From assembly GCF_011492945.1 (NCBI RefSeq), contig NZ_CP045119.1:3782001-3846000 (forward strand): 64,000 nt of DNA, written 5' to 3'. The notes beneath the pieces are model-generated. The model saw only the letters and a list, made by a program, of their open reading frames with translations, did no database searches and had not been told where the DNA came from. Positions 18,679 to 60,235 of this stretch are shown one piece after another (position 1 is the first letter of the stretch; each line of letters opens with the position of its first letter). A program made the translations under genes and the position numbers. This stretch comes from Rubrobacter tropicus. GTDB taxonomy: Bacteria; Actinomycetota; Rubrobacteria; Rubrobacterales; Rubrobacteraceae.

Positions 18679-18732
18679 AGGTTAACCACCCGTGCTGAAG
18701 AAGCCCTGAAGCGATCCTGAGCGTATGCTGAA
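18679..18732 (-). promoter_or_regulatory. TCAG array A (four 11-bp direct repeats plus -10)
   Basis: Plus-strand CTGAA/CTGAG pentamers start at 18695, 18706, 18717 and 18728. Exactly 10 bp separates the array from TAACCT on minus (18679-18684). It drives the operon 18611 to 17472. The divergent thioredoxin-like gene at 18825 could share the site. Confidence 0.75.
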
Positions 18733-18824
18733 AGAGAAGGAGAATGACGACACCGGTCAAAGCAACCATACGAGAGCCCTGGTCTAATCGGGTTCTCGGT
18801 CGACAGGGACGAAAGAAAGGGGCG

Positions 18825-19148
18825 ATGGTGAAGGTAGAGGTCCTGTACTTCGACGGCTGCCCGACGTACCGGGAGGCGGAGGAGACCCTGAGGGAGGTGC
18901 TTGCGGAGGCGGGCGCGGGTGCCGGCGTGGCGCTTGTCGCCGTGAACACCGACGAGGAGGCCGAGAGACTACGCTTTCCGGGGAGCCCGACGATCCGGGT
19001 GGAGGGCGAGGATCTGTTCCCAGCCGGCGAGCGGGGGGAATGGCGACTGGGCTGCCGGGTCTACGCCACCCCGGAAGGGTTGAAGGGTTCGCCGACAAAG
19101 GAGATGCTCAGGCAGGCGCTGGAGCGCGCCGCCGTCTTGCCCTCCTGA
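18825..19148 (+). CDS. Thioredoxin-fold protein of the DF-family (seleno)protein type
   Basis: The start at 18825 has AAAGGGG ahead of it. The 107-aa protein begins KVEVLYFDGCPTYREAEETL, where GCPTY replaces a thioredoxin CxxC by a single Cys. It ends with a beta-alpha unit around FPGSPTIRVEGEDLFPAGE, including the cis-Pro region (GSPT). This is the small single-Cys thioredoxin-like group often annotated as DF-family proteins and found with mercury or thiol-stress genes. It is convergent with the CsoR-like gene. A Met/Cys redox or metal-thiol role is likely; substrate is unknown. Confidence 0.7.
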   Translation: MVKVEVLYFDGCPTYREAEETLREVLAEAGAGAGVALVAVNTDEEAERLRFPGSPTIRVEGEDLFPAGERGEWRLGCRVYATPEGLKGSPTKEMLRQALERAAVLPS

Positions 19149-19248
19149 CGGGTCGCGAGCGCCACGCGATGGTAGGGGTGACCGTAGCGGGCATGCGTCC
19201 TGGACGTCTACGGTTCGCGTGGGCTGCCAGGGCGCGTTTGCCCGGCCT

Positions 19249-19629
19249 CTACGTGTCCCGCGATGCGCCCTCCCTCCCCTCCCCGCGGCCCTCCTTCGCT
19301 CGTATCGGCAGGATGCGCTCGACGGCGGACGCGAGCTCGTCCACGGTCTCGTCGGGTCCGAGGTCGTTCCCGGCGGCGCCGTGCAGACGGTGACCAGCAT
19401 GGTACTGAAGGACTAGCAGCGCGACCTTCTCCGACGCGGCGGCTACGGCCCCGATCTGGGTGAGGATATCCGCGCACGGGGCATCCTCCTCGACCATGCG
19501 TTGCACGCCACGCACCTGCCCTTCTATCCGCCGCAGGCGTATCTTCAGCTTCTCCCTGTCGTCCGCGCCGATGCAGGCCTCACCCGGCCGCCCGAAGTCC
19601 CGCTCCCCGTCGTGCGCGATGGGACTCAC
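19249..19629 (-). CDS. CsoR/RcnR-family metal-sensitive repressor with an altered metal site
   Basis: A 126-aa all-helical DUF156 protein. REKLKIRLRRIEGQVRGVQR is the family signature, and the ligand helices read CADILTQIGAVAAASEKVAL and LQYHAGHRLHG. Copper-sensing CsoR uses Cys, His and Cys at relative positions 0, +25 and +29. Here C52 and H77 are present, but position +29 is Arg81; the nearest extra ligand is H80. The canonical Cu(I) trigonal site is therefore incomplete, and another metal, another signal or loss of sensing is possible. It is the last gene of the long copper-ATPase operon and starts 1 bp after the methyltransferase stop. Confidence 0.88.
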   Translation of the reverse strand: MSPIAHDGERDFGRPGEACIGADDREKLKIRLRRIEGQVRGVQRMVEEDAPCADILTQIGAVAAASEKVALLVLQYHAGHRLHGAAGNDLGPDETVDELASAVERILPIRAKEGRGEGREGASRDT

Positions 19630-19630
19630 C

Positions 19631-20284
19631 TCACACCGCTTTCCGGTTAGCGCGGCGCAGGCGCGGGAAAAAGGCAGGGACGAGCGCGGCGTACCTTTCG
19701 TACTCCTCGCCGAATTCCTCCCTCACCTCCCGCTCCTCGCGGCGGGCAAGCCTAACGTACATCATCACCAGCACGGGGAACATGGCGAGCGTGATGAGCG
19801 TCGGCCACTGCATCAGGAAACCGAACATGATCAGGACGAAGCCAGCGTACTGCGGGTGGCGCACGCGGGCGTAGGGGCCCGTCGTGGCGAGCCGCTTCTC
19901 ACGCTGCGCCCTGTAGAGCACGTTCCAGGAGGCGGAGAGCAGAATGAAGCCGGCGGCGATGACCACGTTGCTCAGGACGTGCAGCGGGTTCAGGTGCGGG
20001 TTCCCCTCCCACCCGAGAAGCACCTCCCACAGGTGGCCGTTCGCGTGCGAGAACGGGTCGATACCGGGGTAGCGGCTGCCGAGCCATCCGGAGAGCAGGT
20101 AGATCGTGAGCGGGAAACCGTACATCTCCGTGAAGAGCGCCACCAGAAACGCAGAGAAGGCGCCGAAGGAACGCCAGTCGCGCTTCGTACGCGGTCGCGC
20201 GAAGCTGAAGGCAAAGATGATGAAAATCGCCGAGTTGATTATGACGAGCAGCCAGAGGCCGTAAGCGGGCGAATCGGAGATCAT
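19631..20284 (-). CDS. Isoprenylcysteine carboxyl methyltransferase-family membrane protein
   Basis: A 217-aa integral membrane protein with about five helices and the C-terminal ICMT/PEMT signature: TTGPYARVRHPQYAGFVLIM, then RREEREVREEFGEEYERYAA. These residues bind S-adenosylmethionine. Bacterial members methylate unidentified membrane substrates and are common beside heavy-metal ATPases, as here. The start overlaps the end of the His-tailed small membrane protein by 4 nt. It probably acts with the cyclopropane synthase in the same operon to modify the membrane during metal stress; that is inference. Confidence 0.85.
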   Translation of the reverse strand: MISDSPAYGLWLLVIINSAIFIIFAFSFARPRTKRDWRSFGAFSAFLVALFTEMYGFPLTIYLLSGWLGSRYPGIDPFSHANGHLWEVLLGWEGNPHLNPLHVLSNVVIAAGFILLSASWNVLYRAQREKRLATTGPYARVRHPQYAGFVLIMFGFLMQWPTLITLAMFPVLVMMYVRLARREEREVREEFGEEYERYAALVPAFFPRLRRANRKAV

Positions 20285-20523
20285 CGCGTACCCTCCTTAG
20301 GCGGCTTTACACGTTCATCGTCGTCGGCCGAATGTCCGCCGTGCCCTCCATGTCCGCCGTGCCCCCTGTGCATGAAGAGGTGGAACACGATGAAGAGCGC
20401 CACCAGCGCGTACGGCAGGAACCCGGAGAGATGGACCCTGTGCTCCAGGACCAGAAAGAAACCGGCGACGGCGAGGGAGGCTAGCAGGACCACCCCCGCG
20501 CGGGAGCGCAAGAAGGCGATCAT
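20281..20523 (-). CDS. Small membrane protein with a His/Gly tail (DUF2933-like)
   Basis: An 80-aa protein with two hydrophobic helices (AGVVLLASLAVAGFFLVLEH, LPYALVALFIVFHLFMH) and a [11 protein letters not shown] tail that can bind Cu, Ni or Zn. The shape matches DUF2933 proteins found beside copper ATPases. It overlaps both neighbours by 4 nt (cyclopropane synthase before, methyltransferase after), so translation is coupled along the operon. The four-His tail probably faces the cytoplasm. Confidence 0.75.
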   Translation of the reverse strand: MIAFLRSRAGVVLLASLAVAGFFLVLEHRVHLSGFLPYALVALFIVFHLFMHRGHGGHGGHGGHSADDDERVKPPKEGTR

Positions 20524-22186: not shown

Positions 22187-22242
22187 TTCCAACTCCTTCC
22201 GGCAAGAATGCATCGACCCGTGCTCGCCTCGGGTTTCAGGCT

Positions 22243-22344: not shown

Positions 22345-22366
22345 CCGTCACCTCCTCCCGGTCTTC

Positions 22367-22744
22367 CTACTCGACCACCAGCTTGCCGCGGATCATGCCC
22401 ATCTGGCAGGCAAACCCGTACTCGCCGGATTCCTCCGGAAGGAACTCCACGGACACCGTCTCTCCCTCGGGCAGGCGCGCGCTCTTGTCGAAGTCGCCGA
22501 AGACGACCATCTCCGAGCAGGCTGCGCTCTCCTCGCGTCGGAAGTTGAGACGCACGGGCTTGCCGCGCTCCACCAGGATCACGTCCGGCGTGTACCCGCC
22601 CTTGACCAGCACCATTGCTTCCTGGTATCCGCCGGAAGTTACCGGAACCCGGTAGCCTCCCCTGCGCGGCCCCCAGAAGAAAAAGGCGATGGCGGCGATG
22701 GCGGCGAGACCGCCGATAACGACCAGTACGTCTGCGGTAGTCAT
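22367..22744 (-). CDS. Membrane-anchored cupredoxin
   Basis: Start 22744 has GGGAGG 7 nt ahead; a longer frame from 22807 is not supported. The 125-aa protein has one N-terminal helix (VLVVIGGLAAIAAIAFFFWG) and a cupredoxin domain from about residue 30. Its end carries the type-1-like ligand pattern: CSEMVVFGDFDKSARLPEGE, then GEYGFACQMGMIRGKLVVE with Cys and Met. It sits directly downstream of the four-helix protein and the copper ATPase. It probably receives or delivers Cu on the outer face of the membrane for the exporter or the multicopper oxidase. Confidence 0.88.
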   Translation of the reverse strand: MTTADVLVVIGGLAAIAAIAFFFWGPRRGGYRVPVTSGGYQEAMVLVKGGYTPDVILVERGKPVRLNFRREESAACSEMVVFGDFDKSARLPEGETVSVEFLPEESGEYGFACQMGMIRGKLVVE

Positions 22745-22826
22745 GCTTGAACCTCCCTGGTCTTGTGGGGCGTCTCGACGGAGCACGTGTCCGGCAATGA
22801 CCGCCACCCGGTCCGGCAGTGGAGCC

Positions 22827-23240
22827 TCATCGGGCCACCGCCGCGAGGACGAGGGCGATGGCCCACAGGCCTGCGAGGGCCAGGAGCGGTCGCTTGAAGT
22901 CCGAGTCGATCACGACGTTCACCAGCGCCATCCAGCCGATCGAGGTCGCCCATACCAGGGCGAGAACGACCAGCGCGCCGCCTTCGCCCGAACGCAGACT
23001 GGTGTTTGCCAGGTACGCGACGAGCACCCCGGTCGAGACGATGTAGCCGCCCATCACCCAGAACACGCGCTTGAGCCATCGAGAGAGGTCGGGCGCGGCC
23101 TTTAGGAGGGCAGCCTGAGTAGTGCCCATGAAACGGGCATCCTCGGGTAGCAGGGCCGGGCGGGCGATGATGAAGTACCCGCCGATCCCGACGAGGGCGA
23201 GGCCGGAGAGGGTCAGCAGCCAGGCGGCTACCGAGGTCAC
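22827..23240 (-). CDS. Four-helix membrane protein of unknown function
   Basis: A 137-aa integral membrane protein with four hydrophobic segments ([75 protein letters not shown]). No Cys, His or Met cluster is seen, unlike its neighbours. Its start overlaps the end of the copper ATPase gene by 4 nt, so it is tightly coupled to it. It may be an accessory or assembly subunit. I do not recognise a named family. Confidence 0.65.
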
Positions 23241-26032
23241 TCAGTCACCCCCTTCGCTTCCTTCGGCTTCCAGAGCTTGAGCCGGTTGGCGTTGGTGATC
23301 ACGGTGATGGAACTGAGGCTCATCGCCAACGCCGCCAGCAGCGGCGAGAGCAGTATCCCCGCGAACGGGTAGAGGAGCCCGAGGGCCACCGGGATGCCGA
23401 GCCCGTTGTAGACGAAGGCCCCGAACAGGTTCTGTCGGACGTTGCGCATGGTGGACTTGGAGATCTCGACCGCCGTCACCACGCCCCGCAGGCTGCCGCT
23501 GATGAGCGTTACGTCCGCCGCCTCTATGGCCACGTCGGTGCCGGTCCCGATGGCGAAACCGACGTCGGCCTGGGCGAGCGCGGGGGCGTCGTTTATTCCG
23601 TCGCCGACCATCCCGACCTTCTTGCCTTCCAGTTGAAGCTTCTGAACGTTGTGGGCCTTGTCCTGCGGCAGCACCTCGGCGAGCACCCGATCGATACCGA
23701 CCTGCCGCCCGATCGCCTCGGCCGTGCGCTGGTTGTCGCCGGTGATCATGGCGACTTCGAGCCCCAGGCGCTTGAACGCAGCGACGGCCGACACGGAGTC
23801 CTCCTTGATGGTGTCCGCCACGGCGATGACGCCCGCCGCGGCGCCGCCGATGGCGACGTACATCGGGGTCTTGCCGTCGTCCGCGAGCCGGCGGGCCTCA
23901 GCTTCGAGCCTTCCGAGGGCGATGCCCCGGTCGTCCATCAACTTCGCGTTGCCGAGCATGACGCCCCTACCTTCTACGCCGGCCTCAACGCCGTGGCCGG
24001 GGATGGCGGAGAAGCCCGCCACCTGGGGCAAGTCGAGCTCCCCTGCGCCCTCGACTATCGCGCCGGCTAGCGGGTGCTCGGAGTTGCGTTCGATGGCGGC
24101 GGCGAGCCTGAGGACCTCGTCCTCGTCGAAGCCGTTCTCGGTTACGACGTTTGTCAGCTCGGGTTTCCCCTTTGTTATGGTGCCGGTCTTGTCCAGGACG
24201 ACGGTCTGGAGCTTCGAGGCGGTCTGGAGGGCGTCTCCGGAGCGGATCAGGATGCCGTTCTGGGCGCCCAGGCCCACGCCTGTAGTCAGGCTGACCGGTG
24301 TCGCCATACCCAGGGCGCACGGGCAGGCGATGATGAGGGTGGTGACCGCCACGATGAGGGCGTAGGCGAGGGCCGGAGCTGGGCCGAAGACGAACCAGAC
24401 GACGAAGCCCGCGATGGCCAGGATCATGACCGCCGGGGTGAAGTAGCTAGAGACTGTGTCCACGACGCGCTGGATCGGGACCTTCGACCCCTGGGCGTCC
24501 TGCACCATGCGGATGATGTTAGAGAGCGCCGTGTCCTTGCCGACCTTGGTGGCCGTAAAGCGGAAGCTCCCGGTCGCGTTGATCGTCGCCCCGATGACCT
24601 CGTCGCCCTCGTGCTTCTCCACGGGTATGGATTCGCCGGTGATCATGGACTCGTCCACAGACGAGGTACCCTCCAGCACGACGCCGTCCACCGGCACCTT
24701 CTCTCCGGGACGGACGACCACGGCGTCGCCAACGAGCACCTCTTCGACGGGTATGTCCATCTCCCGTCCATCCCGGACCACGCGTGCGGTCTTGGCCTGC
24801 AACCCGATGAGCTTCTTGATGGCCTCCGACGTACGTCCCCGGGCCTTGACCTCGAGCGCCAGGCCTAGAACCACCAGCGCCGTCACCACCACGGTCACGT
24901 CGTAGTAGACGTCGGTCATCGCCTCGTCCGGGAAGATCCGGGGGAAGAGCAACGCGATGGTGGAGTAGATCCAGGCGACGCCGGTGCCGGTGGCGATGAG
25001 GGTGTGCATGTTGGCCTGCCGGCGCTTGATCCCCTGCCACATACCCACGAAGAACTGGCTACCGCTGTAGACGAGCACGGCCAGGCTGGCTATTCCCATC
25101 AGTCCCCAAACGACGCGCAGCTCGGCGCTTCCTCGGGGCAGGACGTCCCGCAGAATTGGGATGATCCACGGGTAGGACAGGATCATGGTCGGCCCGCCGA
25201 CCGCGGCCCCGAACCACCACTTGCGCATCAGGCGCCGGTACTCCCGCTCCTGCTCGGACACCTCTTCCTCTTCGGCCCGTTCGCCGGGCTCTCTAGCCTC
25301 CTGTGCGATGTACGGGCCGGCGCTCTCCACCGCCCGCTCCAGTCCCTTAAGGTCCACTACACCCGGCAGGTAGTCCACCTTCACCTCCTCGGTGGCGGCG
25401 TTCATGGTGGCATCCAGCACGCCCGGTGCGGCCTTGAGGGCTTTCTCTATCTGGTCTATGCACGCCGAGCAATACAGGCCCGTGACCTTCAGACGCAACG
25501 ACGCGCCGCCGGTGTCGAAGCCGGCGTCCCGTACCGCCCGCACCAGCCGCCCGACGCCGACCCGCTCCGGGTCGTATTCGACGCGGGCACGCTCCCCGCG
25601 GACGTTGACCCGGGCTTCGCCCACGCCGGGCACGGCTTCCAGCGCCCGCTCCAGAGCTGGGCCACCCGGACGGCTTCGCTCCAGGCCCGTGAGCGGCAGC
25701 TCGATCCACACCCGACCGCCGGTCTTCGGCGGGACTCCCGTCGTCGCCGACGGCGTGGCCATGGGTGTCCCGCGTGCGTCGTGTTCGTAGCCTCCGGCGT
25801 GGGTGTGTCCCGTGTGGGCGTGGCCCCCGGCGCGCATGTGCTCTCTCATGTACGTGGCCTCCATGTACCTCTGCGGCTCCGCGTCGAACCGCCTCGCGCA
25901 TCCTTCCGAGCAGAAGAAGAGATCCGTCCCGTCGTGGCGGCGCGAGGCTTTGGCCTTTCTCGCGTCTATCAGCATCCCGCACACCGGGTCCCAGCCCGGG
26001 CTCGGAGACCGGTTCACGTCCGGATTCTCCAT
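23237..26032 (-). CDS. copA: Copper-exporting P1B-type ATPase with YHS and two HMA domains
   Basis: The 931-aa pump has, in order: a YHS domain at 15-56 (DPVCGM with C18; C41 and C45), a His-rich linker ([14 protein letters not shown]), a degenerate HMA at about 108-175 with no CxxC, and a second HMA with C188-S-A-C191. The P-type core has TGES, CPC at 570-572 (P1B-1, Cu(I)/Ag(I)), DKTGT, the HP motif in SEHPLAGA, and [10 protein letters not shown]. It hydrolyses ATP to move Cu(I) out of the cytoplasm. A TCAG array lies 40 bp upstream. It heads an operon running to the CsoR-like gene, in which several neighbouring genes overlap. Confidence 0.93.
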
Positions 26033-26057
26033 CAGGCCTCTCTTTCTCTCCGGCCGC

Positions 26058-26133: not shown

Positions 26134-27615
26134 CTACGCCACCTTGATGATGCGCGTCATGCCCCGCTCGGCGTGGTAGATCTGGTGGCAGTGGAAGGCC
26201 CAGTCGCCGGGGTTGTCCGCCAGCCAGTCGAAGGCGAGCCTCTGCTTCGGGTCGACGAGCACGGTGTCCTTGATCGGGCCGCGACCGGTGCCGTTGTCCA
26301 CCCTGAAGAAGTGGCCGTGCAGGTGCATCGGATGGGGCATCATGGTCGTGTTCTCCATCTCGAAGCGCACCCGCTCGCCGCGACCCGCCTCTATGGGGTC
26401 GGCGTCGGGGAAGGCCTGGCCGTTTATGGTCCAGACGTAGGTCTCCTCGTCACCGTTGAGCGTGATGGGCAGCACCCGGTCCGGGCTGCCAGACTCCGGG
26501 GCTCCGGCTTCCTGTGTAGCCCTGAGTGCATCGTAGTAGAGCATCCGGCCTGCGAGCTCTGCCGGCCTTTGGTCGGGCCTGGGCCTCGGGTCTTTCGCTC
26601 CTCTGTAACGGAAGACGGCGCGGGCCTGCTTCTCGGTGCCTTCGGCGTGCGCGGCGAGTTGCCAGGCGCCGGGATTACTCGCCTCCACGAGCACATCGTA
26701 GCGTTCGCCCATGCCGATGCGGATCGTCTCGACCTCCACTGGCTCTACCGGCTGGCCGTCGGTGTGGGTGACGGTCATGCGGTGGCCCTGCAACGCCACC
26801 CGGTAGATGGTGGCGGATGAGGGGTTGAGGAGCCTGAGCCGCACCTTCTCTCCCCGCCGGACCTCCAGCTCCTCCGGTGAATCGGGGGGCTTGCCGTTTA
26901 TGAGGTACATGGGGTAGACGACGTCCGGCGGCCACTGGGGAGGCGCGTCTCCGCCCTCCGTGCCGAGCATCCCCTCCATGCCCTCCATGTCCGCCATCGC
27001 GCCCCGGTCGGACTTCAGCTTCTCCATCTCCTCCTCCGGGGTGCCCCGCACGCCGTCGAGCCAGTCGTCGAGCACGAGCGTGTACTCGCGGTCGTAGGAG
27101 AGCGTCTCGTTCCTGGGCTCCACGATCAGGGGCCCATACAGGCCGCGGTCGAGCTGCGTGCCGACGTGGGAGTGGTACATGTAGGAGCCGGAGACGGGCA
27201 CCTCGAACTCGTAGACGAAGTCCCCTTCAGGCTTTATGGGCTCCTGGGTGACGCCCGCGACGCCGTCCATGCGGTTTGGAACCGGCAGGCCGTGCCAGTG
27301 GATGGTCGTGTCCTCCGGCAAGCGGTTGCGCACCTCCACGCGCAGGATCTCGTCCTGCTTGAGCCTTATCTCGGGCCCCGGCAGGTCCTTTCCGTACCCC
27401 CAGGTCGAGACCTTGCGCCCGCCCAGGTCCAACTCCAGCGCAGAGGCCTCCAGGGCGTATTCGGCAATTCTGGACGCGCTACGGGCTGTCGGAGGGTTCT
27501 GTCTCGCGGGTGACAGGACCCCACATCCGCCCAGGACGAGCGCCCCGGCCCCCAATCCTGCCATTCCAATGAATCCCCGGCGGGTCAACCTCGGCGGTCT
27601 TCTGGACTCCCTCAT
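26134..27615 (-). CDS. Multicopper oxidase, Tat-exported
   Basis: The 493-aa protein begins with a twin-arginine signal ([20 protein letters not shown]) and a lipobox-like GGCG. Copper sites are complete: [42 protein letters not shown] and [15 protein letters not shown] with the type-1 Cys and Met. A Met-rich insert ([16 protein letters not shown]) sits between domains, as in CueO-like enzymes that oxidise Cu(I) to the less toxic Cu(II). Other substrates are possible. It has its own TCAG array 80 bp upstream and lies immediately upstream of the copper-ATPase operon. Confidence 0.93.
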
Positions 27616-29133: not shown

Positions 29134-29251
29134 CACAGACCTCCTACAGCCTTCACCGCTCCCGCAGAACGCCGATGACCGTGACACCGTCGGGATGAGC
29201 TGGCGCCTACCGTGATGGCCGCCGAGCCGGTCGTCGTTTTGGGCGGCGGCT

Positions 29252-29482
29252 TCACCGCGCGATGGGCTCTCCGGCCCGGAAGCCAACCCTCTCGACTGCC
29301 GCCACGAGCCTGTTCGCTCCTACGACCGCGGGGTCGTACTCGACGTAGGCCGTCTCCGTCGCGGGGTTGACGTACACTTGCACCACCCCCGGTACTTTGG
29401 CGAGCGCCCGCTCTACGGTCAGCGCGCCCCCTCCTCCGCACCCCAGCTCGTAGATGAACACCGTGACCCGTCGGGTCTTCAC
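29252..29482 (-). CDS. HMA-like protein with a degenerate metal motif
   Basis: GTG 29482 has AAAGGAG upstream; the earlier ATG at 29626 lies beyond the predicted promoter. The 76-aa protein has the ferredoxin-like HMA pattern (ALTVERALAKVPGVVQVYVN, then YVEYDPAVVGANRLVAAVER), but the binding loop reads LGCGGGG. One Cys (C15) remains and the second of CxxC is Gly. It resembles the first, also degenerate, HMA of the copper ATPase ([10 protein letters not shown]). Weak or one-Cys metal binding, or a dimeric site, is possible. It has its own TCAG array. Confidence 0.75.
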   Translation of the reverse strand: MKTRRVTVFIYELGCGGGGALTVERALAKVPGVVQVYVNPATETAYVEYDPAVVGANRLVAAVERVGFRAGEPIAR

Positions 29483-29544: not shown

Positions 29545-29598
29545 AGAATCGCACTCCGAGTTGAGGAACGGCTGAGGTTTTCCTGATTTGTTGCTGAG
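29545..29598 (-). promoter_or_regulatory. TCAG array D (HMA protein promoter)
   Basis: TTGAG, CTGAG, CTGAT, CTGAG (plus strand) start at 29561, 29572, 29583 and 29594. Ten bases lead to GATTCT on minus (29545-29550), preceded by TG. It lies about 60 bp upstream of GTG 29482. Confidence 0.75.
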
Positions 29599-32383: not shown

Positions 32384-32626
32384 TCAGGCACCACCTTTCA
32401 CGCGATCCTTCTCACCCCGCAAGACGTCTAGGGATCTCTCGTACTCCTCGGCGTCGATCTCACCGCGGGCGAAGCGCTCGCGCAGTATCTCTTCCGCCGA
32501 GCCCGTACGGCCGGCCGCCCCGAATCCTTCCAGCCGTTCCCGCCAGTCGGGGAACACCCTAGCCGCGGCCCAGGCAGCGAGGACAAGCAACCCTATGAAG
32601 AACAATATGCCCAATCCGCCCATCAT
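32384..32626 (-). CDS. SHOCT-domain membrane protein
   Basis: An 80-aa protein: MMGGLGILFFIGLLVLAAWA as N-terminus and helix, a linker, then the complete SHOCT motif (AEEILRERFARGEIDAEEYE) and tail RSLDVLRGEKDRVKGGA. The tail aligns with the sequence beyond the amber codon of the 14069 paralog. It is the first gene of a three-gene operon. Two promoters are predicted upstream, one with a TTGA array (32663-32716) and one with a TCAG array (32807-32860), so it would respond to both two-component systems. Confidence 0.88.
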   Translation of the reverse strand: MMGGLGILFFIGLLVLAAWAAARVFPDWRERLEGFGAAGRTGSAEEILRERFARGEIDAEEYERSLDVLRGEKDRVKGGA

Positions 32627-34301: not shown

Positions 34302-34976
34302 CTACCCCTCCCGCATCACGTAGCCGGTGCCGCGCAGCGTGTGGATCAGGCGCGGCTCCCCCTCCGCCTCCAGCTTCTGCCTGAGCTGCTTGACGTAGAC
34401 CTCGAGCACGTTGGTGTTGCCCCCGAAATCGTAACCCCAGACGCGGTCCATAAGGAAGTCCCTCGGCAACACGCGCCTCGGGTGCTCCATGAACTGGAGC
34501 AGGAGGTCGTACTCGGTCGTGGTCAGGTCGATCTCCCTCTTCCCGCGCAGCGCCTGCCGGGTGCCGGTGTCCAGGCAGAGATCCCCGAAGCGCAAGACCG
34601 CGGGCCGCTCGGCCTCCTGGCGCCTCAAGAGCGCCTTCACCCGCGCCAGCAGCACGTCGAAGGCGAAGGGCTTCACCACGTAGTCGTCGGCCCCCTCCCC
34701 GAGGCCCAGGACCTCGTCAGAAGGCGCGTCCTTCGCCGTCAGCATCAGGACCGGGAGCTGCAAGTCTGCGGACCTGAGCCGCTTCAGCACCTCGATGCCG
34801 TCCATGCCGGGCATCATGATGTCCAGGATCACGAGGTCCGGGTAGCGCTCGCGGGCGATTGCGAGGCCGTCCTCGCCGCTCGACGCCACGTCCACGTCGA
34901 AGCGCTCGTAGGAGAAGCCCCGTTTGAGAAGGCTGGTTACTGCCGGATCGTCGTCGATCACCAAAACGTGCGGCAT
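34302..34976 (-). CDS. OmpR/PhoB-family response regulator (MprA/PrrA-like)
   Basis: Start 34976 follows AAGGAGG with good spacing; an ATG at 35045 is less likely. The 224-aa protein has a receiver domain (VLVIDDDPAVTSLLKRGFSY, D52 in VILDIMMPGMDG, K in YVVKPFAFDVLLARV) and a winged helix (DLTTTEYDLLLQFMEHPRRV, RVWGYDFGGNTNVLEVYVKQ, TLRGTGYVMRE). PhoB-type dimers bind 11-bp direct repeats. Because arrays E (32823) and J (35134) flank this gene pair, I infer that it binds the ten TCAG arrays and activates from overlapping -35 regions. Direct evidence is lacking. Confidence 0.93.
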   Translation of the reverse strand: MPHVLVIDDDPAVTSLLKRGFSYERFDVDVASSGEDGLAIARERYPDLVILDIMMPGMDGIEVLKRLRSADLQLPVLMLTAKDAPSDEVLGLGEGADDYVVKPFAFDVLLARVKALLRRQEAERPAVLRFGDLCLDTGTRQALRGKREIDLTTTEYDLLLQFMEHPRRVLPRDFLMDRVWGYDFGGNTNVLEVYVKQLRQKLEAEGEPRLIHTLRGTGYVMREG

Positions 34977-35133: not shown

Positions 35134-35187
35134 TTCAGCAGCCGTTCAGGCTCGCTTCAGGTTCTTCTCAGAGGGCCATGCTAGCTT
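35134..35187 (+). promoter_or_regulatory. TCAG array J (second AarF kinase promoter)
   Basis: TTCAG starts at 35134, 35145 and 35156, and CTCAG at 35167, all on plus with an 11-bp period. Ten bases lead to TAGCTT (35182-35187), preceded by TG. Transcription near 35194 excludes ATG 35178 as the kinase start. It is the only array on the plus strand. Confidence 0.8.
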
Positions 35188-51598: not shown

Positions 51599-51652
51599 AG
51601 CATAGGAGGACGCGCTGATGGAAGACTGAGCGAAGGCTGAGTGTTGGCTGAG
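51599..51652 (-). promoter_or_regulatory. TCAG array G (oleate hydratase promoter)
   Basis: CTGAT starts at 51615, CTGAG at 51626, 51637 and 51648 on plus. Ten bases lead to TATGCT on minus (51599-51604). It fills the space between the phosphoketolase stop and oleate hydratase. Confidence 0.8.
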
Positions 51653-51662: not shown

Positions 51663-54128
51663 TCACGGCGTCCAGACCCAGTCGCGTATCTCCGGCGGGT
51701 CCTCCAGGTGCTCGCGCGAGTAGGCCGTAACTCTGGAGATCAGAGACTCAAGCTCGGAGGTCAGAGTCGAGGCGCACGAGTGCGCCCGGCACCCAGGCCC
51801 GACGCATTTGAGGGCGTCCATCGCAAGGTGGTAACGGCTCATCTTGTTGAGAACGACCATATCGAACGGCGTCGTGGTGGTGCCCTGCTCGTTGAAGCCG
51901 CGAACGTGGAAGCGGTCCACGTCGACGTGGCCGTGCACGATCTCGTGTATCGCCCTCTGGTAGCCGTGGAACGCGAAGACTACCTGCTTGTCGGGCGTAA
52001 ACAGCTCTACGAAGCGTGACTCACTCATGCCGTGCGGGTGGAACTCGCGCGGGAAGAGCGTCATGAGGTCCACGACGTTGACGACCCGCACCTTGAGTTC
52101 GGGGGCGTGCTCGCGCAGCCAGTGGGCCGCCGCGACGGTCTCCAAAGTGGGGATGTCCCCGGCGCATCCCAGCACGACGTCGGGCTCCTCGCCATCGGGC
52201 ACGTTGGACGCCCACTCCCAGATCGAGACACCACGCGTGGCGTGTTCGATGGCCGCGTCCATGTCGAGCCACTGAAGCTGGGGTTGCTTGTCTATGACGA
52301 TCAGGTTCACGTAGTCGCGGCTGCGAAGGCAGTGATCCGCGACCGAGAGCAGGGTGTTGGCGTCTGGGGGCAGGTAGATGCGCGCGACGGTGCCCCTCTT
52401 GGAGAGCATCACGTCTATGAGGCCAGGCCCCTGGTGGGAGAAGCCGTTGTGGTCGTTGCGCCAGGCCGTGGAGGTCAGGAGGATGTTGAGCGAGGAGATC
52501 GGCTCCCGCCAGGGCAGGTGGACCGCCTCCTCCAGCCACTTGGTGTGCTGGACCACCATCGAGGCGGGGATCATCGCGAAGGCCTCATAGGTGGCGAACA
52601 GGCCGTGTCGTCCGGTCAGCAGGTAGCCTTCCAGCCACCCCTCGCACAGGTGCTCGCTCAAGACCTCCAAGACCCTCCCGTCCGGCGAAACGTGGTCGTC
52701 TATCCGGATCGTCGGCCCAACAAAGCAGCGGTCCTCGACCTCGAAGACGGCGCCGAGGCGGTTGGAGTTGGTCTCGTCCGGGCAGAAGAGCCGGAAGTTC
52801 CGCCGCGCGGCGTTGAGCGTGAAGGTGTCGCGCAAGAGATCCCCAAGCTTGCGTGTGGACTCCTGGCGCATCGTGGCTGGCGCCGGTACCCCGACGGCGT
52901 AGTCGCGGAAGTCGGGAACTTCGAGATCCTTTAGCACCCGACCGCCGTTGGCGTGAGGGTTCGCGCCCATGCGCCTATCCCCCTCCGGGGCGAGCGCGAC
53001 AAGCTCGGGAATCAGACGTCCCTCTTCGTCGAACAGTTCCTCGGGGTGGTAGGAGCGCATCCATTCTTCGAGCCGCGCGAGCTGGTCCGGGTCTGACCTC
53101 ACCCTGGAGAGCGGCACCTGGTGGGAGCGGAAGGTACCGGTGGCCGGCAAGCCGCTCACCTCGCCTGGGCCGGTCCAGCCCTTGGGGGTGCGGAGCACGA
53201 TGGCCGGCCATCGCGGGCGTTCCGAGATGCCATTCTCGCGTGCCTGACGCTGGATAGCCCGGATCTCCTCGTAGCACCGGTCGAGAGTGGCAGCGAAGGC
53301 TTGGTGCACGCGAGCCGGGTCGTCCCCCTCGACGAAGTGGACCCAGTAGCCGTGTCCCCTGAGGATGGCGCGGACCTCGTCGTTCGATGCGCGGCCCAGC
53401 ACGGTGGGGCCCGAGATCTTGTAGCCGTTCAGGTGCAGTATCGGTAACACCGCCCCATCACGCGCCGGGTTGAGGAAGCTCGTGGACTTCCAGGAACCCT
53501 CCAGAGGGGCGGTCTCGGCCTCGCCGTCTCCGACCACCGCGGCGACGAGGAGGTCCGGGTTGTCGAAGGCGGCGCCGAAGGCATGGGAGAGCACGTAGCC
53601 CAGCTCGCCGCCCTCGTGGATCGAGCCGGGAGTGGGCACGCTGACGTGGCTCGGCACGCCCCCGGGCGTGGAGAACTGGCGAAAAAGCCTTTGCATCCCG
53701 GCCGCGTCCCCGGAGACCTCCGGGTAAACCTCGGAGTATGTTCCTTCGAGGTAGACGTTGGCCAGGACGGCCGGGCCCCCGTGGCCTGGGCCGGCCAGGT
53801 AGATGGCGTCCACGTCGCGCTCCCGTATGAGGCGGTTCAGATGCACGTAGACGAGGCTCAGGCCTGGGGAGGTGCCCCAGTGGCCGAGCAGGCGCGGCTT
53901 GATGTGCGAAGGGTCCAGGGGGTCGCGCAGGAGTGGGTTGTCCTTCAGGTAGATCTGGCCGACCGTCAGGTAGTTGGCGGCCAGCCAGTAGCGGTCTATT
54001 TTTTCCAACAGCTCCGGCGAGAGTGGCCCTTCCACCGGCGTTTCCCGTAAACGGGGCGGTGGGCCGCCGTCGCTCTCGACCGCGCTGGAGATATTGGGGT
54101 CGAAACGGTACGCGGGGCTCTCCTTCAT
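51663..54128 (-). CDS. xfp: Phosphoketolase (xylulose-5-P/fructose-6-P)
   Basis: The 821-aa ThDP enzyme has the full-length layout: [40 protein letters not shown], the ThDP motif [18 protein letters not shown], and [20 protein letters not shown]. The C-terminal domain has [15 protein letters not shown]. It cleaves xylulose-5-phosphate or fructose-6-phosphate with phosphate to give acetyl phosphate and glyceraldehyde-3- or erythrose-4-phosphate. Acetate kinase starts upstream with a 1-nt gap, so acetyl phosphate is turned into ATP and acetate. Expression is probably from array F. Confidence 0.95.
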
Positions 54129-54129
54129 A

Positions 54130-55311
54130 CTACGCTCCTTCCTGTGACGTGAACCTTGCGAGTTTGTAGGTGTGGCGGGCGATCGTCAGGTCCTCGTCGG
54201 CGGGGATCACGTGAACGGCCACCGGTTCGCCGTCGCGGGAGACGACGGGCGCGTTCTGCGCGTTGCGCTCCGGGTCTAGCCGGATACCGAGGAACTCCAG
54301 CCCCTCGCAGATGCGCCACCGCACGGCCGACGCGTGCTCCCCGATGCCGCCGGTGAAGACGAGCGTGTCCAGCCCGCCGAGCGCGGCTGCTAAAGAGCCC
54401 AGGGACTTCTTCGCCGCGTAGCAGAAGAGGGCGACGGCCTCGGCGGCGCGCGGGTCTTCCGCCACGCGCTCCAGCAGGTCGCGCATGTCCGCGCTGGTCC
54501 CCGAGACCCCGAGGAGCCCCGACTCCCGGTTGACGAGTTCGCGCAGGGCGCCGGGGTCCATCGACCGTAGCAGGTGGAGGATCACACCGGGGTCGAGGTC
54601 GCCGGGCCTGGTGCCCATCACGAGCCCGCCCGAGGGGGTGAAACCCATCGTCGTGTCCACGCCCACGCCTTCTCTTACCGCGGCCATGCTCGCCCCGTTC
54701 CCGAGGTGTGCTATGACGACGCGCCCGGCCGCCGCCTCCGGGTCCAGGCGGCGCAGCTCGCCCACCACGTACTCGTAGGAGAGACCGTGGAACCCGTAGC
54801 GGACAACGCCTTCGTCCGCGAAGCGGCGCGGGAGGGCGAAGAGCCGGGCGACGTGGGGCATGGTCCGGTGAAAGGCGGTGTCGAAGGCGGCCACCTGCGG
54901 TATCTCCGGCCCGAGGGCTTCACGAACGGCCCGAATCGCGGCGAGGGCGGGTCTGTTGTGCAGGGGCGCGAGCTTTCCCAGGGCTTCGATCCCTTTTAGC
55001 GCCGCGGGATCCAGGAGCGCCGGCCCGGAGAAGCGCGCCCCGCCGTGGACGATCCGGTGGCCGACGGCCCCGACGCCGTCCAACAGGCCGCAGCGGTCGA
55101 GCTGTCGCATCACCAGGAGCGCAGCCCAGATGTGATCGCCCGCCGAGGCGGGCCGTACCGTCTTCTCGCCCCTCTCGCTGTAGATCTCGACGTTTCCGCC
55201 GGAACCCCCGATCCTGTCCACGGCCCCGCGGACCAGAAACCGCTCGCCCTCCGACTCGAAGAGCCCGAACTTCAACGTCGAGCTTCCGCAGTTGATAGTG
55301 AGGACCCTCAT
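54130..55311 (-). CDS. ackA: Acetate kinase
   Basis: The 393-aa enzyme has [56 protein letters not shown] and [20 protein letters not shown], all the family motifs. It makes ATP from acetyl phosphate and ADP. It overlaps the TreT-YHS end by 4 nt and is followed by phosphoketolase after 1 nt, a phosphoketolase-acetate bypass under one promoter. A phosphotransacetylase gene is not in the window. Confidence 0.95.
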
Positions 55312-56741
55312 GACCCCGCGACGGCCCGAAGAAAGTATTCCGGTGAAGCCTCGAACTGACCCCGGCAGGACTCAGAGCAAAAGTCGTAGCGGTGCCCGCG
55401 GTACTCGTACCCGAACGCCGGTGTCGGTCCGAGCAGCATCCCGCAGACCGGGTCCCTATCCTCCCTGCCGAGACCCGCCTGGGCGACCGCCACGTCCGGT
55501 TGCCGCGCCCCGAGTAAGGCCCCATAGAGCCTGAGCTCGTCGGCGATCAGGCGTGTAAGCAGGAACCGCCCGCGCACGAGCTCCCGACCCATCCCGGCAA
55601 GCTCCGCTCCTTCCTCTGGATCTTTGAGCAGGCGCAGGGTCTTCGCGGCGCACTCCTCGACGGAGTCAACGAGGAAACCGCCGGCCCCGCCCTGCATCTG
55701 CAGCGGGATGCCCCCGGCCCGGCCGGCCACCACGGGCGTCTCCTTCCACAGCGCCTCGGAGACGACCAGGCCGAAGCCCTCGCGGATCGACTTCTGTATC
55801 ACCACGTCGGAGAGGCGTTGGAAGGCGTTGACCTCCACGTTGCCCACCCCGGTGAGGTTGGTAAAGAGGTGGATGTGGAGATCGGACTTTGAGGCGGCCT
55901 GGATCCGGCGGTAGATCTCCCACCCCTCAGGATCGTCGAGCGCCATCGAGCCGACGAGGGCCAGTTGCAGGTCGGGCACCTCCTCCCGGACGAGCCGGTA
56001 CGCTTCCATGACGCCAAGGGGGTCCTTCCAGGGGTCGAAGCGCGAGACCTGGGTGACGAGGGGTCTGGCCGTGTCAACCCCGATCCAGGCCAGCACGTTC
56101 TGCGCGGTCCTACGGTCGAGCCTCATGTTCTTGGGGCTCTCCGGGTCTATGGCCGGAGGTACGATCTCCACCCTCCCCACCGGCACGTCGGGCGGCGCGA
56201 AGCTCCCCAGGGTGAAAACGGCCGCGTCGTAGCCCTCGAGGTACTGCCGCAAGAAGCCCCAGACCTGCGGGTTGGGCTCGGCGGTGTCTATGTGACAGCG
56301 CCAGACCCAGCGCGAGCTGCCCTTGCCCCGCAACTTCAGGAGCGCGAGAGGCTGCGGGTCGTGGACGACGATCAGGTCGTACTCCTCCTCCAGGAGGGAG
56401 GCGTTGCGGGCTGAGTAGGTCAGGTAAGTCTCCCGCTCGGCCGGTGTCAACTCGCGTTCGGCCCCCTGCAAACCGTTGTGCATGGCCTTCGTCACGGAGA
56501 AGAAGGGTTCGTCTCCGGTGATTAATCTCCAATCCGCCACGATCCCGAGATCCCTCAAAAGCGGTATCTCGGAGCGCAGGATCTCGGCCACCCCGCCGCC
56601 GTAGGGCGTCGCGTTGAGGTGGAGCACCCGCGCCCCGCGCAGGGGCTCCGCCAGCTCCCTCAGTTGCGCCACGGCCTCAGCCCCTGCGCTCGATTCGTAG
56701 AGGTTTACGTACTGCCTCCCAACGTCCACGGTCTCGAGCAC
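55308..56741 (-). CDS. treT: TreT-type trehalose glycosyltransferring synthase fused to a YHS domain
   Basis: Residues 1-410 are a GT4 glycosyltransferase: [59 protein letters not shown] and [20 protein letters not shown]. That pattern fits TreT, which makes trehalose from ADP- or UDP-glucose and glucose. Residues 430-477 are a YHS domain (DPVCGM with C433, C455, C459) like that of the copper ATPase at 23237. The fused pair is unusual; YHS modules bind metals. The linker has no good internal start. The gene heads the xfp operon behind array F. Confidence 0.88.
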
Positions 56742-56905
56742 CGTTACCTCCCTAGTCCGTCTGCAAGGTGCTTCCGCCCGATAGAGCTCGGGCCGGCTCT
56801 CTCACGGTAGTGCCCCGAAAGCACTTAGCGCGGCACCACCCGGAGGCCCGCCTCCTGTTCTCCCCGTGCTCGCTTCTCGATAGCCCTCACGTCGCACAGG
56901 ACAGG

Positions 56906-56959
56906 ACTTTACCCGTGGAACCTGATGGCCGGCTGAGTTCTGGCTGATCGGTAACTGAG
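56906..56959 (-). promoter_or_regulatory. TCAG array F (treT-ackA-xfp promoter)
   Basis: CTGAT, CTGAG, CTGAT, CTGAG start at 56922, 56933, 56944 and 56955. Ten bases lead to TAAAGT on minus (56906-56911). The leader to ATG 56741 is about 160 nt. Confidence 0.8.
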
Positions 56960-56983
56960 GGCCCGTCGTGGCGGGCCGACCCA

Positions 56984-57670: not shown

Positions 57671-57721
57671 AGTTCCCTCCCAATGCGGTCGAGGGGCAAA
57701 TAAGAGCGTCCAGCCGTGCTC

Positions 57722-58219: not shown

Positions 58220-58259
58220 GTCCTACCTCTCTTTCGGAAGTCCGCTCCCATGGTCTCCT

Positions 58260-59399
58260 CTACTCCAGATGCGACACGACCGGGGTCACGGCGGTGATGA
58301 TCGTCAGGACCGTCAAAGCGACGACCAGCACGCCCCCGAGGCCCAGCATAAGCGGCCTCCGTCGCAGGCGACGGAGCGGCGTTCGGTCCAAGAACGGCAC
58401 GAGCACGAGGAGCCCGAAGAAGACGATCGCGGCGTACAGGACGCCGTTGACGCCGAACCACGCCTCGGGGGTGTACATCCAGTAGTAGATCGGCGACGGC
58501 TTGGTGATCTCCATCGCGGGATCGGGGGCCGCGCCGATGGCGCCCGGCAAGAGCACCGCCAAGGTTCCGGCGAGACCCAGGACGACCAGCCCGTAGCCGA
58601 GCATCTTCCGCGCGTGGGTCGCGTAGCTGGCGGTCTGCCTCTCTTTGGGCAGCTTCCCGCCGGGCGCCTCGCCGGCCTCTTCCTGGGCCGGGGTCGGGGA
58701 GATGCCGTGGTACTTGATCAGGAAGATGTGGGCGATAAGCAAGAACACCAAGAGCAGCGGGACGATGCTGACGTGCGCGATGTACAGGCGCGGCAGCATG
58801 GAGACGCTCGTCGTGAAGGCGTCCGAGAAGAACCCCCCGAAGGCTCCGAGCAGGCTCGCCAGCTCCATGTTGTGGACCATCGCCTCGTAGGCCTCCTGGT
58901 CCCAGCGCAAGACCGTCCCAGTAAAGAAGGCGCCGAACATGATCAGGCCCAGCAGACCCACCCCGACCAACCAGTTGACCTCGCGCGGGGCCTTGTAGGA
59001 GGCGGTGATGAAGACCCGGACCATGTGCAACACGGCACCGATGACCGCTATGTAAGCCGACCAGATGTGTATGCCGCGCATGACGTCGCCCAGAAGCGCC
59101 TCGTTCTGGATAAAGAGCACGCTCTCCCTCGCTGCGGCCGGGTCCGGGTTGTAGTACTGGGCGATCCAGACGCCCGAGGCGACCGAGATGAGAATCGCCA
59201 TGAAGGTGATGCCGCCGAGGATGTACCAGATCGTGTTGGCGTGCTCCGGTACCGCGTATGCGAGAGCCCGGATGCCCGTGCGGCTCTCGATCCAACCCCA
59301 CAGCCTCCCTGGCCTCGTCCCCCTCTGCCCCGCGCCCGTGAAGGTTCTGGCGCTCCTCGCGGTACCGTCGCCACGCGCAATCTCGCTGTCCTGGGCCAT
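58260..59399 (-). CDS. Cytochrome b6-type diheme cytochrome b
   Basis: Start 59399 has AAAGGAGG 6 nt ahead. The 379-aa protein has eight predicted helices. Haem ligands are HIWSAYIAVIGAVLH (H-x13-H) and HVSIVPLLLVFLLIAH (H-x14-H). The x14 spacing in the second pair marks b6/b6f-type proteins rather than bc1. The C-terminal half (YYWMYTPEAWFGVNGVLYAA) resembles subunit IV. A Rieske protein or c-type cytochrome is not adjacent on either side. It could be part of a split quinol-oxidising complex or work with other partners. Promoter is array H. Confidence 0.88.
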   Translation of the reverse strand: MAQDSEIARGDGTARSARTFTGAGQRGTRPGRLWGWIESRTGIRALAYAVPEHANTIWYILGGITFMAILISVASGVWIAQYYNPDPAAARESVLFIQNEALLGDVMRGIHIWSAYIAVIGAVLHMVRVFITASYKAPREVNWLVGVGLLGLIMFGAFFTGTVLRWDQEAYEAMVHNMELASLLGAFGGFFSDAFTTSVSMLPRLYIAHVSIVPLLLVFLLIAHIFLIKYHGISPTPAQEEAGEAPGGKLPKERQTASYATHARKMLGYGLVVLGLAGTLAVLLPGAIGAAPDPAMEITKPSPIYYWMYTPEAWFGVNGVLYAAIVFFGLLVLVPFLDRTPLRRLRRRPLMLGLGGVLVVALTVLTIITAVTPVVSHLE

Positions 59400-59448
59400 A
59401 TCTTGCCTCCTTTGGCCCGCGGCCGGCGCGAGGGCCATCCTGGACGTA

Positions 59449-59502
59449 GGAGTACCAGAGCATCCTTAATGTTTTCTGATTTGTGGCTTAGTTTTTCCTG
59501 AG
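59449..59502 (-). promoter_or_regulatory. TCAG array H (cytochrome b promoter)
   Basis: CTTAA, CTGAT, CTTAG, CTGAG start at 59465, 59476, 59487 and 59498 on plus, an 11-bp period with two weaker copies. Ten bases lead to TACTCC on minus (59449-59454). Confidence 0.72.
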
Positions 59503-59589
59503 TATTATCTCTGGGCGGACCGCAGACCGGACTCCGTGTCGGGCTCAGAAAACGCGGCGGAGTGGAAGGCCAAGACGCTACCTGGAGAA

Positions 59590-59649
59590 GAGATCTCCGG
59601 CGGAGATCTCGAAAGGAGGATGCGGGCCCGATGAGGCTTCGCATCCTCC
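59590..59649 (-). terminator. Two tandem hairpins after the His/Met-rich gene
   Basis: GAGATCTCC (59590-59598) pairs with GGAGATCTC (59602-59610); GGAGGATGCG (59615-59624) pairs with CGCATCCTCC (59640-59649). Both are perfect. They lie just beyond the stop at 59662 and separate it from the cytochrome b promoter. Confidence 0.55.
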
Positions 59650-59661
59650 GGTAACTCACCG

Positions 59662-59874
59662 CTACATGTGGTGGTGTGGGCCGAAATGCACCATTGCCAT
59701 GCCCGGGGCGGCGTGGGCGTGGACCGAACCGGCGTGCGCCATCGCCTCGCCACCACCGGCCTGCGCCATCACAGAACCGGCGCCCGCCATGACCGTACCC
59801 GTACTCGCCATCGCCGGAGATGCTGCCACCAGCATCGTCGCCAGAACGGCCGCCAGCGCGATCAACTTCCTCAT
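59662..59874 (-). CDS. Small exported His/Met-rich peptide
   Basis: ATG 59874 is preceded by GTGAGGACAAG. The 70-aa product has a signal peptide (MRKLIALAAVLATMLVAASP, cleavage near AMA-S). The mature part of about 47 residues repeats G-x-V-M-A and ends HAGSVHAHAAPGMAMVHFGP followed by HHHM. It has seven His and seven Met, so copper or silver binding is likely. No named family is recognised. It has its own TCAG array (59999-60052) and tandem terminators, so it is a monocistronic, regulated gene. Confidence 0.7.
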   Translation of the reverse strand: MRKLIALAAVLATMLVAASPAMASTGTVMAGAGSVMAQAGGGEAMAHAGSVHAHAAPGMAMVHFGPHHHM

Positions 59875-60235
59875 CTTGTCCTCACTCTCGCCTGGATCTG
59901 CTTCGTCTCCGAAAGTCCCTGCCGGGAGACTGTTTCTCCTGCTTCCACCTCCTCTGCGATTGGCCGTAGGGTGAATAAACGATCTCTCGTCTGCAATTCT
60001 CGTACCACACGGCCCTGAACTCCCGCTGATGCGAAGCTGAATGCTTCCTGAAAACCGCCTGGCGACAACAAACGATGTGGAGCGAAATCCTGGGCGGATC
60101 CGAACCTCCAGGCAGGTTGACCGTACCGTCACCCGCAGGTTCTCTTGCGAACGCGCCGCATTTAGCACCGCGACGATCGTCACAATCCCAGGCACGTGGC
60201 ATCGTAACGAACCGCGGGCGATAAACTTGGCGGCG
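59875..60235. other. Divergent intergenic region with array I
   Basis: This 361-bp stretch holds array I (59999-60052) and the leader of the His/Met-rich gene. Beyond it to 60235 I see no gene; an in-frame upstream extension of DedA-PAP2 to 60041 overlaps the array and is rejected. Confidence 0.6.
59999..60052 (-). promoter_or_regulatory. TCAG array I (His/Met-rich peptide promoter)
   Basis: CTGAA, CTGAT, CTGAA, CTGAA start at 60015, 60026, 60037 and 60048 on plus. Ten bases lead to TACGAG on minus (59999-60004), preceded by TG. Confidence 0.78.

What the first reader, a model, noticed from the sequence alone, without database searches (positions are those of the whole stretch)
18679..60052. 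Ten promoters share a four-copy, 11-bp-period YTCAG array set exactly 10 bp from a -10: an apparent new stress regulon
Seen directly: arrays at 18695, 26074, 27693, 29561, 32823, 35134, 51615, 56922, 59465 and 60015 (first base of each). Each has four pentamers close to YTCAG in the gene direction, starting exactly 11 bp apart, then exactly 10 bp, then a -10-like hexamer (TAAAGT, TATGCT, TACGAG, GAGACT and so on), often with an extended TG. Known: PhoB/OmpR-family regulators bind tandem 11-bp direct repeats and activate from positions overlapping -35. Inferred: one activator controls copper export and oxidation, an HMA protein, SHOCT proteins, an AarF kinase with a geranylgeranyl-type reductase, oleate hydratase, trehalose-acetate-phosphoketolase, cytochrome b and a His/Met peptide.
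Basis: partly seen in the sequence, partly recalled or inferred. Interest (0 to 1): 0.93.

Follow-up and report, generated by a model that had tools for sequence, protein, structure and literature searches.

The report
Four-site copper-regulon promoter arrays
Ten gene-start regions clustered in one stretch of this bacterial genome carry the same four-fold repeated control sequence at a fixed distance from the promoter, very likely the landing site of a neighbouring copper-stress switch protein that has moved between distant bacterial phyla together with its target genes.

Summary
All ten arrays sit at the stated coordinates: four TCAG cores, 11-bp step, 10 bp, then a -10-like hexamer. In the 4.58-Mb genome every match to the pattern (8 exact; 14 with up to 2 mismatches, all of them the ten arrays or register shifts of them) lies in this window; reversed control 0. 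The regulon is confined to 41 kb.

Array and a PhoB/OmpR-type regulator (RR, 34302-34976) go together. The RR's closest relatives found are in Chloroflexota (up to 79%), not in its own family (58%). Around them the arrays recur beside copper ATPase, HMA, cupredoxin and multicopper oxidase genes. Of 59 such arrays, 50 have NANNNT exactly 10 bp downstream, at most 6 at any other offset. Array-linked RRs share a recognition helix (VYVKQLRQK) and kinases with a juxtamembrane His triad.

Best reading: a horizontally shared, copper-responsive two-component regulon with a four-site operator over the -35 position. The mechanism is PhoB-like; operator, regulator clade and island-bound regulon were not found in my paper searches. 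Copper sensing, DNA binding and transcription starts are inferred. Phosphoketolase, oleate hydratase and trehalose targets look lineage-specific.

The parts
18679..18732 (-). array 1 (16/16) + 10 bp + TAACCT; upstream of small membrane ORF 18447-18611, then 17954-18484 and 17472-17966
   Evidence: homologs of 17954 or 17472 lie after arrays in L253 and L256-L260
26058..26111 (-). array 2 (16/16) + 10 bp + GAGACT; upstream of YHS/HMA copper P-type ATPase 23237-26032
   Evidence: same array-gene pair in L199, L264, L304, L308
27677..27730 (-). array 3 (16/16) + 10 bp + GAGACT; upstream of multicopper oxidase 26134-27615
29545..29598 (-). array 4 (15/16) + 10 bp + GATTCT; upstream of HMA (CopZ-like) 29252-29482 and CoA-ligase-like 27772-29286
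   Evidence: HMA follows arrays in L198, L255, L257, L259, L261, L264 and L297
32807..32860 (-). array 5 (16/16) + 10 bp + CACAAT; just past the kinase stop codon, upstream of SHOCT-like small protein 32384-32626
35134..35187 (+). array 6 (16/16) + 10 bp + TAGCTT; divergent from the RR, upstream of AarF/ABC1 kinase 35220-36896 and GGR-like 36949-38181
51599..51652 (-). array 7 (16/16) + 10 bp + TATGCT; upstream of oleate hydratase (MCRA) 49901-51502
56906..56959 (-). array 8 (16/16) + 10 bp + TAAAGT; upstream of TreT-YHS, acetate kinase, phosphoketolase (55308-56741, 54130-55311, 51663-54128)
59449..59502 (-). array 9 (14/16) + 10 bp + TACTCC; upstream of cytochrome-b-like 58260-59399
59999..60052 (-). 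array 10 (16/16) + 10 bp + TACGAG; upstream of His/Met-rich exported peptide 59662-59874
34302..34976 (-). OmpR/PhoB-family response regulator (proposed activator)
   Evidence: Response_reg + Trans_reg_C; clade and helix
32871..34298 (-). sensor histidine kinase; juxtamembrane His30/His34/His48
   Evidence: HAMP, HisKA, HATPase_c; His triad
22367..22807 (-). cupredoxin, on the same strand after the copper ATPase
   Evidence: Pfam; 73% identical homolog after the ATPase in the Chloroflexi contig

Best explanation
The arrays are operators of the adjacent two-component system. The phosphorylated RR (34302-34976) binds head-to-tail to four TCAG half-sites 11 bp apart (two dimers), covering about -59 to -23, with its third and fourth sites on either side of the place of a -35 box, and recruits the main RNA polymerase to a -10 at fixed distance (PhoB-like class II activation). 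The kinase senses periplasmic copper or a like metal. The switch is an island-bound copper-defence regulon shared by horizontal transfer with Chloroflexota and Gemmatimonadota; here it has also taken in phosphoketolase/acetate kinase/trehalose, oleate hydratase and other genes. Shown: array, spacing, confinement, co-occurrence with the RR clade, recurrent metal-gene targets. Inferred: binding, phosphorylation, copper as signal, activation rather than repression, transcription starts, direction of transfer.
For: Genome confinement. In the RR neighbourhoods of other genomes, 37 of 38 arrays of 15/16 or more (found by TCAG alone) have NANNNT at +10, at most 4 of 38 at any other offset from 2 to 24; with 16 more stretches added, 15 of them picked by the array pattern itself, 50 of 59, at most 6 at any other offset from 2 to 29, background 3.6%. 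RR best relatives 72-79% in Chloroflexota versus 58% in its own family; clade of 17 RRs (14 Chloroflexota, 2 Gemmatimonadota, window) with 100/98 support. Arrays of 14/16 or more by RR identity: 7 of 7 loci at 72-79%, 6 of 6 at 66-68%, 3 of 17 at 62-65%, 3 of 10 at 58-61%. Q-type recognition helix: arrays of 15/16 or more in 13 of 16 loci, versus 5 of 29 with other helices (L259 moved by hand to the Q group, the script's own table is 12 of 15 versus 6 of 30; L095's count entered by hand). His triad (2 or 3 of 3) in 14 of 15 Q-clade kinases versus 4 of 23 others. Metal genes after arrays in other genomes. RR genes themselves preceded by arrays in L202, L203, L289-L291. Local regulons elsewhere: Chloroflexi G396, 4 strong arrays in 34 kb around its RR and two 2-mismatch matches on other contigs; G465, 11 of 12 on one contig within 39 kb; G526, 4 of 4 within 8 kb; G568, 4 of 5 and G720, 3 of 4 near the RR.
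Against: No binding or expression data. 9 of 59 arrays elsewhere lack NANNNT at +10, 8 of the 9 in stretches picked by the pattern. The absence of a TTGACA-like -35 (0 of 59) is weak support, because the array's own fixed bases largely forbid it. L267 has the helix and His triad but no array of 14/16 or more; L203 and L262 have none of 15/16. L253, with the highest RR identity and 4 arrays, keeps only one of the three histidines. Some array-linked genes have no metal link (SDR in G396; several unknowns). Locality is not universal: near the RR lie only 4 of 8 matches in G413, 2 of 6 in G757, 2 of 4 in G600, 1 of 4 in G708, 0 of 3 in G470, 0 of 1 in G687, and the short contigs of G529 and G728 cannot tell; G728 also had 10 reversed-control matches, the other 12 genomes none. 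The Deinococcus RRs with the same helix lack the His triad and no copper gene is annotated within 9 kb; the D. ficus array faces no evident gene. The sensor model matches no solved structure at E 0.001 or better; best is WalK, the zinc sensor CzcS only rank 20. Helix, triad and array fall in one clade and may be one evolutionary event.
Confidence: 0.77

Rival explanations
1. The same RR and operator, but the signal is not copper: envelope or redox stress, with copper genes only part of a wider response (not exclusive of most of the best explanation).
For: Window targets include phosphoketolase, oleate hydratase, trehalose synthase, AarF kinase and cytochrome-b-like genes; Deinococcus relatives with the same helix have no annotated copper gene within 9 kb; the sensor fold search is unspecific.
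Against: Recurrent metal genes after arrays in many genomes, no homologs of XFP, AckA, TreT or oleate hydratase at E 1e-8 in the 28 array stretches compared, and the kinase His triad that tracks the array clade.
Confidence: 0.25
2. The arrays belong to another regulator, for example the second OmpR-type RR of the island (15523-16209) or a distant one.
For: A second RR-kinase pair lies near the island and has a homolog about 30 kb from the first in the Chloroflexi contig.
Against: In 16 of 16 Q-helix neighbourhoods (4.5 to 21 kb held) the only OmpR-type RR found is the ortholog of 34302-34976; its recognition helix tracks the arrays.
Confidence: 0.05
3. The arrays repress (RR blocks polymerase at -35) rather than activate.
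For: The sites cover the -35 region, a place where binding can also block.
Against: The array leaves no room for a good -35 box, and the spacing to the -10 is rigid, as expected for contact with sigma; in E. coli the pho box usually lies near the -10 in place of the -35 (PMC4971064, passage).
Confidence: 0.06
4. Chance or low-complexity repeats.
For: A few TCAG arrays in other genomes are plain tandem repeats in which the spacers repeat too (G012, G351, G398 C90).
Against: Spacers differ between copies and promoters; only period 11; reversed control 0 in the own genome; all hits in one 41-kb stretch; independent -10 conservation.
Confidence: 0.01

Closest known systems
PhoB/PhoP pho box (E. 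coli and others)
   Same: OmpR/PhoB-type RR; head-to-tail 11-nt direct repeat units; box near the -10 taking the place of the -35 (PMC4415409 and PMC4971064, passages seen)
   Different: Core TCAG instead of the pho-box unit; four units as a rule with fixed 10-bp distance to the -10; metal genes, not phosphate genes; regulon confined to an island
CopRS of Corynebacterium glutamicum
   Same: OmpR-type copper two-component system controlling adjacent copper ATPase and multicopper oxidase genes; tandem repeat with 11-bp step (PMC3353115, passages seen)
   Different: Operator TGAAGATTTnnTGAAGATTT, two copies, single site; here TCAG, four copies, ten promoters
M. tuberculosis PrrA and PhoP, nearest by sequence in the PDB
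   Same: Full-length OmpR-type RR homologs (phmmer E 2e-56 and 4e-56)
   Different: Paralogous regulators; M. tuberculosis origin, signals and targets recalled, not from a call
Variant arrays beside paralogous two-component systems in the window's own family (L083, L085, L092, L094)
   Same: 11-bp CTCA/TCTAA-type repeats, 10 bp, then GATAAT/GATACT/AATACT
   Different: Other core (three clear copies in L083), one array per locus seen, downstream genes small exported proteins where one could be read

Membership tests
OmpR/PhoB-type response regulator | receiver domain plus winged-helix Trans_reg_C domain | tested here: met
   PF00072 E 3.2e-31 and PF00486 E 7.6e-27
OmpR/PhoB-type response regulator | phosphorylation-dependent tandem binding to direct repeats | not testable with these tools
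   needs protein and DNA
PhoB-like class II promoter | 11-bp head-to-tail repeats covering the -35 place at fixed distance from a -10 | tested here: met
   (sequence only; the -35 count is largely forced by the array)
PhoB-like class II promoter | RR-dependent transcription from that -10 | not testable with these tools
   needs transcription assays
Pho regulon (PhoB/PhoP) | pho-box sequence and phosphate genes as targets | tested here: not met
   core is TCAG, recurrent targets are metal genes; pho-box consensus letters recalled, not from a call
CopRS/CusRS-type copper system | copper export/oxidation genes under the RR's operator | tested here: met
   arrays before copper ATPase, MCO and HMA in the window and relatives; that the RR uses them is inferred
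CopRS/CusRS-type copper system | same operator sequence as C. glutamicum CopR | tested here: not met
   TGAAGATTTnnTGAAGATTT in PMC3353115 versus TCAG-N7 units
CopRS/CusRS-type copper system | kinase responds to copper | not testable with these tools
   only the conserved His triad is seen
MprA regulon (M. tuberculosis) | TCTCAG-like tandem operator | not tested
   resemblance recalled; the listings of three paper searches showed no paper on the MprA box, and none of the listed papers was opened

The most novel reading that the evidence does not exclude
A self-contained mobile regulon: regulator, kinase, four-site operators and targets move between phyla as one island, and new genes (central carbon, lipid, trehalose, respiration) join the regulon only by landing in the island and gaining a full four-copy array at a fixed place, so that regulon membership is set by genome position.
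Probability: 0.35. Interest if true: 0.75.

Novelty: new member of a known kind. Interest (0 to 1): 0.6.

Why it matters
It gives a simple, testable operator code (four TCAG at 11-bp steps, 10 bp, NANNNT) for a likely metal two-component system found in at least three phyla, in groups with little regulatory data, and pairs it with a candidate specificity helix and a candidate metal site. The strict confinement of ten promoters to 41 kb of a 4.6-Mb genome is a clean case for studying how a regulon is moved and enlarged. It also predicts that phosphoketolase, oleate hydratase and trehalose genes answer to the same signal as copper export.

Tried and rejected
Chance, other periods, reversed pattern: rejected. 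A regulon spread over the window's own genus or family: rejected for the 38 other genomes held. The second RR as regulator: disfavoured. Closest own-family relatives G026/G027 (RR 58%, kinase 44%): nearby sequences score only 13/16, near chance level, and lead to no convincing gene. Thermomicrobium roseum plasmid RR (57%): no TCAG array of 13/16 or more. Sensor fold search: only weak, unspecific hits. Paper searches for an MprA box and for Rubrobacter or Chloroflexi regulators gave nothing used here (listings only). The tree held wrongly stranded own-family rows (so did one row); one search replaces it. In one search L259's helix escaped the regular expression and was counted non-Q; both tallies are given; its Fisher value (2e-4, on the script's table) ignores kinship.
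Full report
Observation. Each is four TCAG cores at an 11-bp step; eight are perfect (16/16), 29561 is 15/16 and 59465 is 14/16. Ten bases after the last core stands a hexamer with A at position 2 in 10 of 10 and T at position 6 in 8 of 10. Of periods 5 to 16 only period 11 gives matches of 14/16 or more in the window; 60 shuffles gave 0.07 on average at that score, 3 in the worst.

Genome-wide test. The window is 3782001-3846000 of a 4.38-Mb contig in a 4.58-Mb genome. So the regulon, as this pattern defines it, is bound to 41 kb. In the same family 4 of 39 genomes, own included, had any match at up to 1 mismatch; the other three had one each, one of them a plain tandem repeat. In 396 genomes of the phylum 11 had an exact match, own included, and none but the own genome had more than two.

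Genes. Downstream, in array order: small membrane protein plus two unclassified proteins; YHS/HMA copper ATPase with cupredoxin; multicopper oxidase; HMA protein with a CoA-ligase-like protein; SHOCT-like small protein; AarF kinase with GGR-like reductase; oleate hydratase; TreT (with a C-terminal YHS domain), acetate kinase and phosphoketolase; cytochrome-b-like protein; His/Met-rich exported peptide. The cytochrome b and CoA-ligase-like names rest on NCBIfam matches below the curated cut-offs, and the GGR domain match is below Pfam's.

Who else has the regulator. In the own family the best RR match is 58% (39 genomes). Among 400 Chloroflexota genomes, drawn from a larger group, 116 have a match at E 1e-80 or better, the best seven 72-79%. 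A tree of 70 RRs puts the window's RR in a clade of 17 (14 Chloroflexota, 2 Gemmatimonadota, itself; 100/98), apart from the own-family rows. Since the window is inside a 4.38-Mb contig, this argues for transfer rather than a stray contig; the direction is not shown. The Chloroflexi contig also shares copper ATPase (64%), cupredoxin (73%), HMA (57%), kinase (50%), the CoA-ligase-like protein (51%), cytochrome b (43%) and the second RR (55%) with the window.

Arrays follow the regulator. I fetched 40 Chloroflexota neighbourhoods (RR identity 79 to 58%): 29 of the 30 best places (the thirtieth, in G396, was already in hand) and 11 lower-ranked ones, chosen mostly for long contigs. Arrays of 14/16 or more are in 7 of 7 loci at 72-79%, 6 of 6 at 66-68%, 3 of 17 at 62-65% and 3 of 10 at 58-61%; in those last three one array stands before the RR gene itself. 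Around these RRs plus the G396 and Gemmatimonadota ones (44 stretches), 37 of 38 arrays of 15/16 or more, collected by TCAG alone, have NANNNT at +10, at most 4 at any other offset from 2 to 24. With 16 further stretches, 15 of them picked by the array pattern (60 stretches, 877 kb), it is 50 of 59, at most 6 at any other offset from 2 to 29, background 3.6%; 8 of the 9 misses are in the pattern-picked stretches. This independent recovery of the -10 is the strongest evidence that the arrays are promoter operators at a rigid distance. A TTGACA-like -35 at 17 bp was seen in 0 of 59, but the array's fixed bases largely force that.

Locality elsewhere. In 13 Chloroflexota genomes of the Q-helix clade (matches at up to 1 mismatch) near-RR matches are 11 of 12 in G465, 4 of 4 in G526, 4 of 5 in G568, 3 of 4 in G720, 1 of 1 in G537, but 4 of 8 in G413, 2 of 4 in G600, 2 of 6 in G757, 1 of 4 in G708, 0 of 3 in G470 and 0 of 1 in G687; G529 and G728 have contigs too short to tell. 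The reversed control was 0 in 12 and 10 in G728. So confinement is strict in the window's genome and common, not universal, elsewhere.

Specificity and sensing. The recognition-helix region reads VYVKQLRQK or nearly so in the array clade and mostly VY(V/I)RYLRQK outside it. Arrays of 15/16 or more are present in 13 of 16 Q-type loci and 5 of 29 others. Kinases of the clade carry HxRxHYD, or part of it, plus a third His just after the first membrane helix: 14 of 15 keep two or three of the histidines (L253 keeps one; L256 has no kinase on its contig), versus 4 of 23 others, and those four (L263, L268, L270, L272) are on the branches nearest the clade. Two Deinococcus plasmid RRs share the helix (VETYVKQLRQK) and have 14/16 arrays with TACTGT and TAAGCT at +10, but their kinases lack the His triad, no copper gene is annotated within 9 kb, and the D. 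ficus array faces no evident gene. This hints that helix and operator go together even when the signal changes. A three-sequence AlphaFold model of the sensor (mean pLDDT 80.5) had no structural match at E 0.001 or better.

Targets elsewhere. Array-linked genes in other genomes are HMA/CopZ, YHS copper ATPase, other P-type ATPases, multicopper oxidase, lipoproteins like 17954 with a CCAHH membrane protein like 17472, small SHOCT-like or His-rich proteins, a GGR-like reductase, and the RR itself; several are unknown or have no metal link. AarF2 has 63-65% homologs in two of the array islands. No homolog of phosphoketolase, acetate kinase, TreT-YHS, oleate hydratase or CMAS was found at E 1e-8 in the 28 array stretches compared, so these look like local additions.

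Mechanism. From PhoB-type systems (11-nt head-to-tail units, box near the -10 in place of the -35; PMC4415409 and PMC4971064, passages only) I infer that two RR dimers sit on the four sites and touch sigma near the -35 position. C. glutamicum CopR, a copper RR with a 9-bp repeat at an 11-bp step and a local copper regulon, is the nearest functional parallel (PMC3353115, passages). Copper as signal is inferred from targets and the His triad.

Novelty. The kind is known (PhoB-type class II activation, copper two-component system). The four-site TCAG operator, the regulator clade and the island-bound regulon did not turn up in the searches made (listings, with passages of four papers seen), which cover open-licence papers only.

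Noticed in passing
55308-56741: Trehalose synthase (TreT) with a YHS metal-binding domain fused at its C-terminus, under an array; it may tie trehalose synthesis to metal state.
   Followed up: partly
17472-17966: Membrane protein with a CCAHH motif and no Pfam or NCBIfam family, 47-73% identical in array islands of Chloroflexota: a candidate new copper membrane protein.
   Followed up: partly
13297-17132: A second two-component system (RR 15523-16209, kinase 14393-15526) with DUF305 and Met/His-rich neighbours; RR and kinase homologs also in the Chloroflexi contig and in L201.
   Followed up: partly
L085:11956, L083:8895, L092:8414, L094:12026: Own-family genomes carry variant 11-bp arrays (CTCA/TCTAA cores) 10 bp from a -10; in L085, L092 and L094 just past the kinase of paralogous two-component systems.
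   Followed up: partly
L293, L295: Deinococcus deserti and D. ficus plasmids hold an RR with the same recognition helix and a 14/16 array, but a different sensor and no annotated copper genes nearby.
   Followed up: partly
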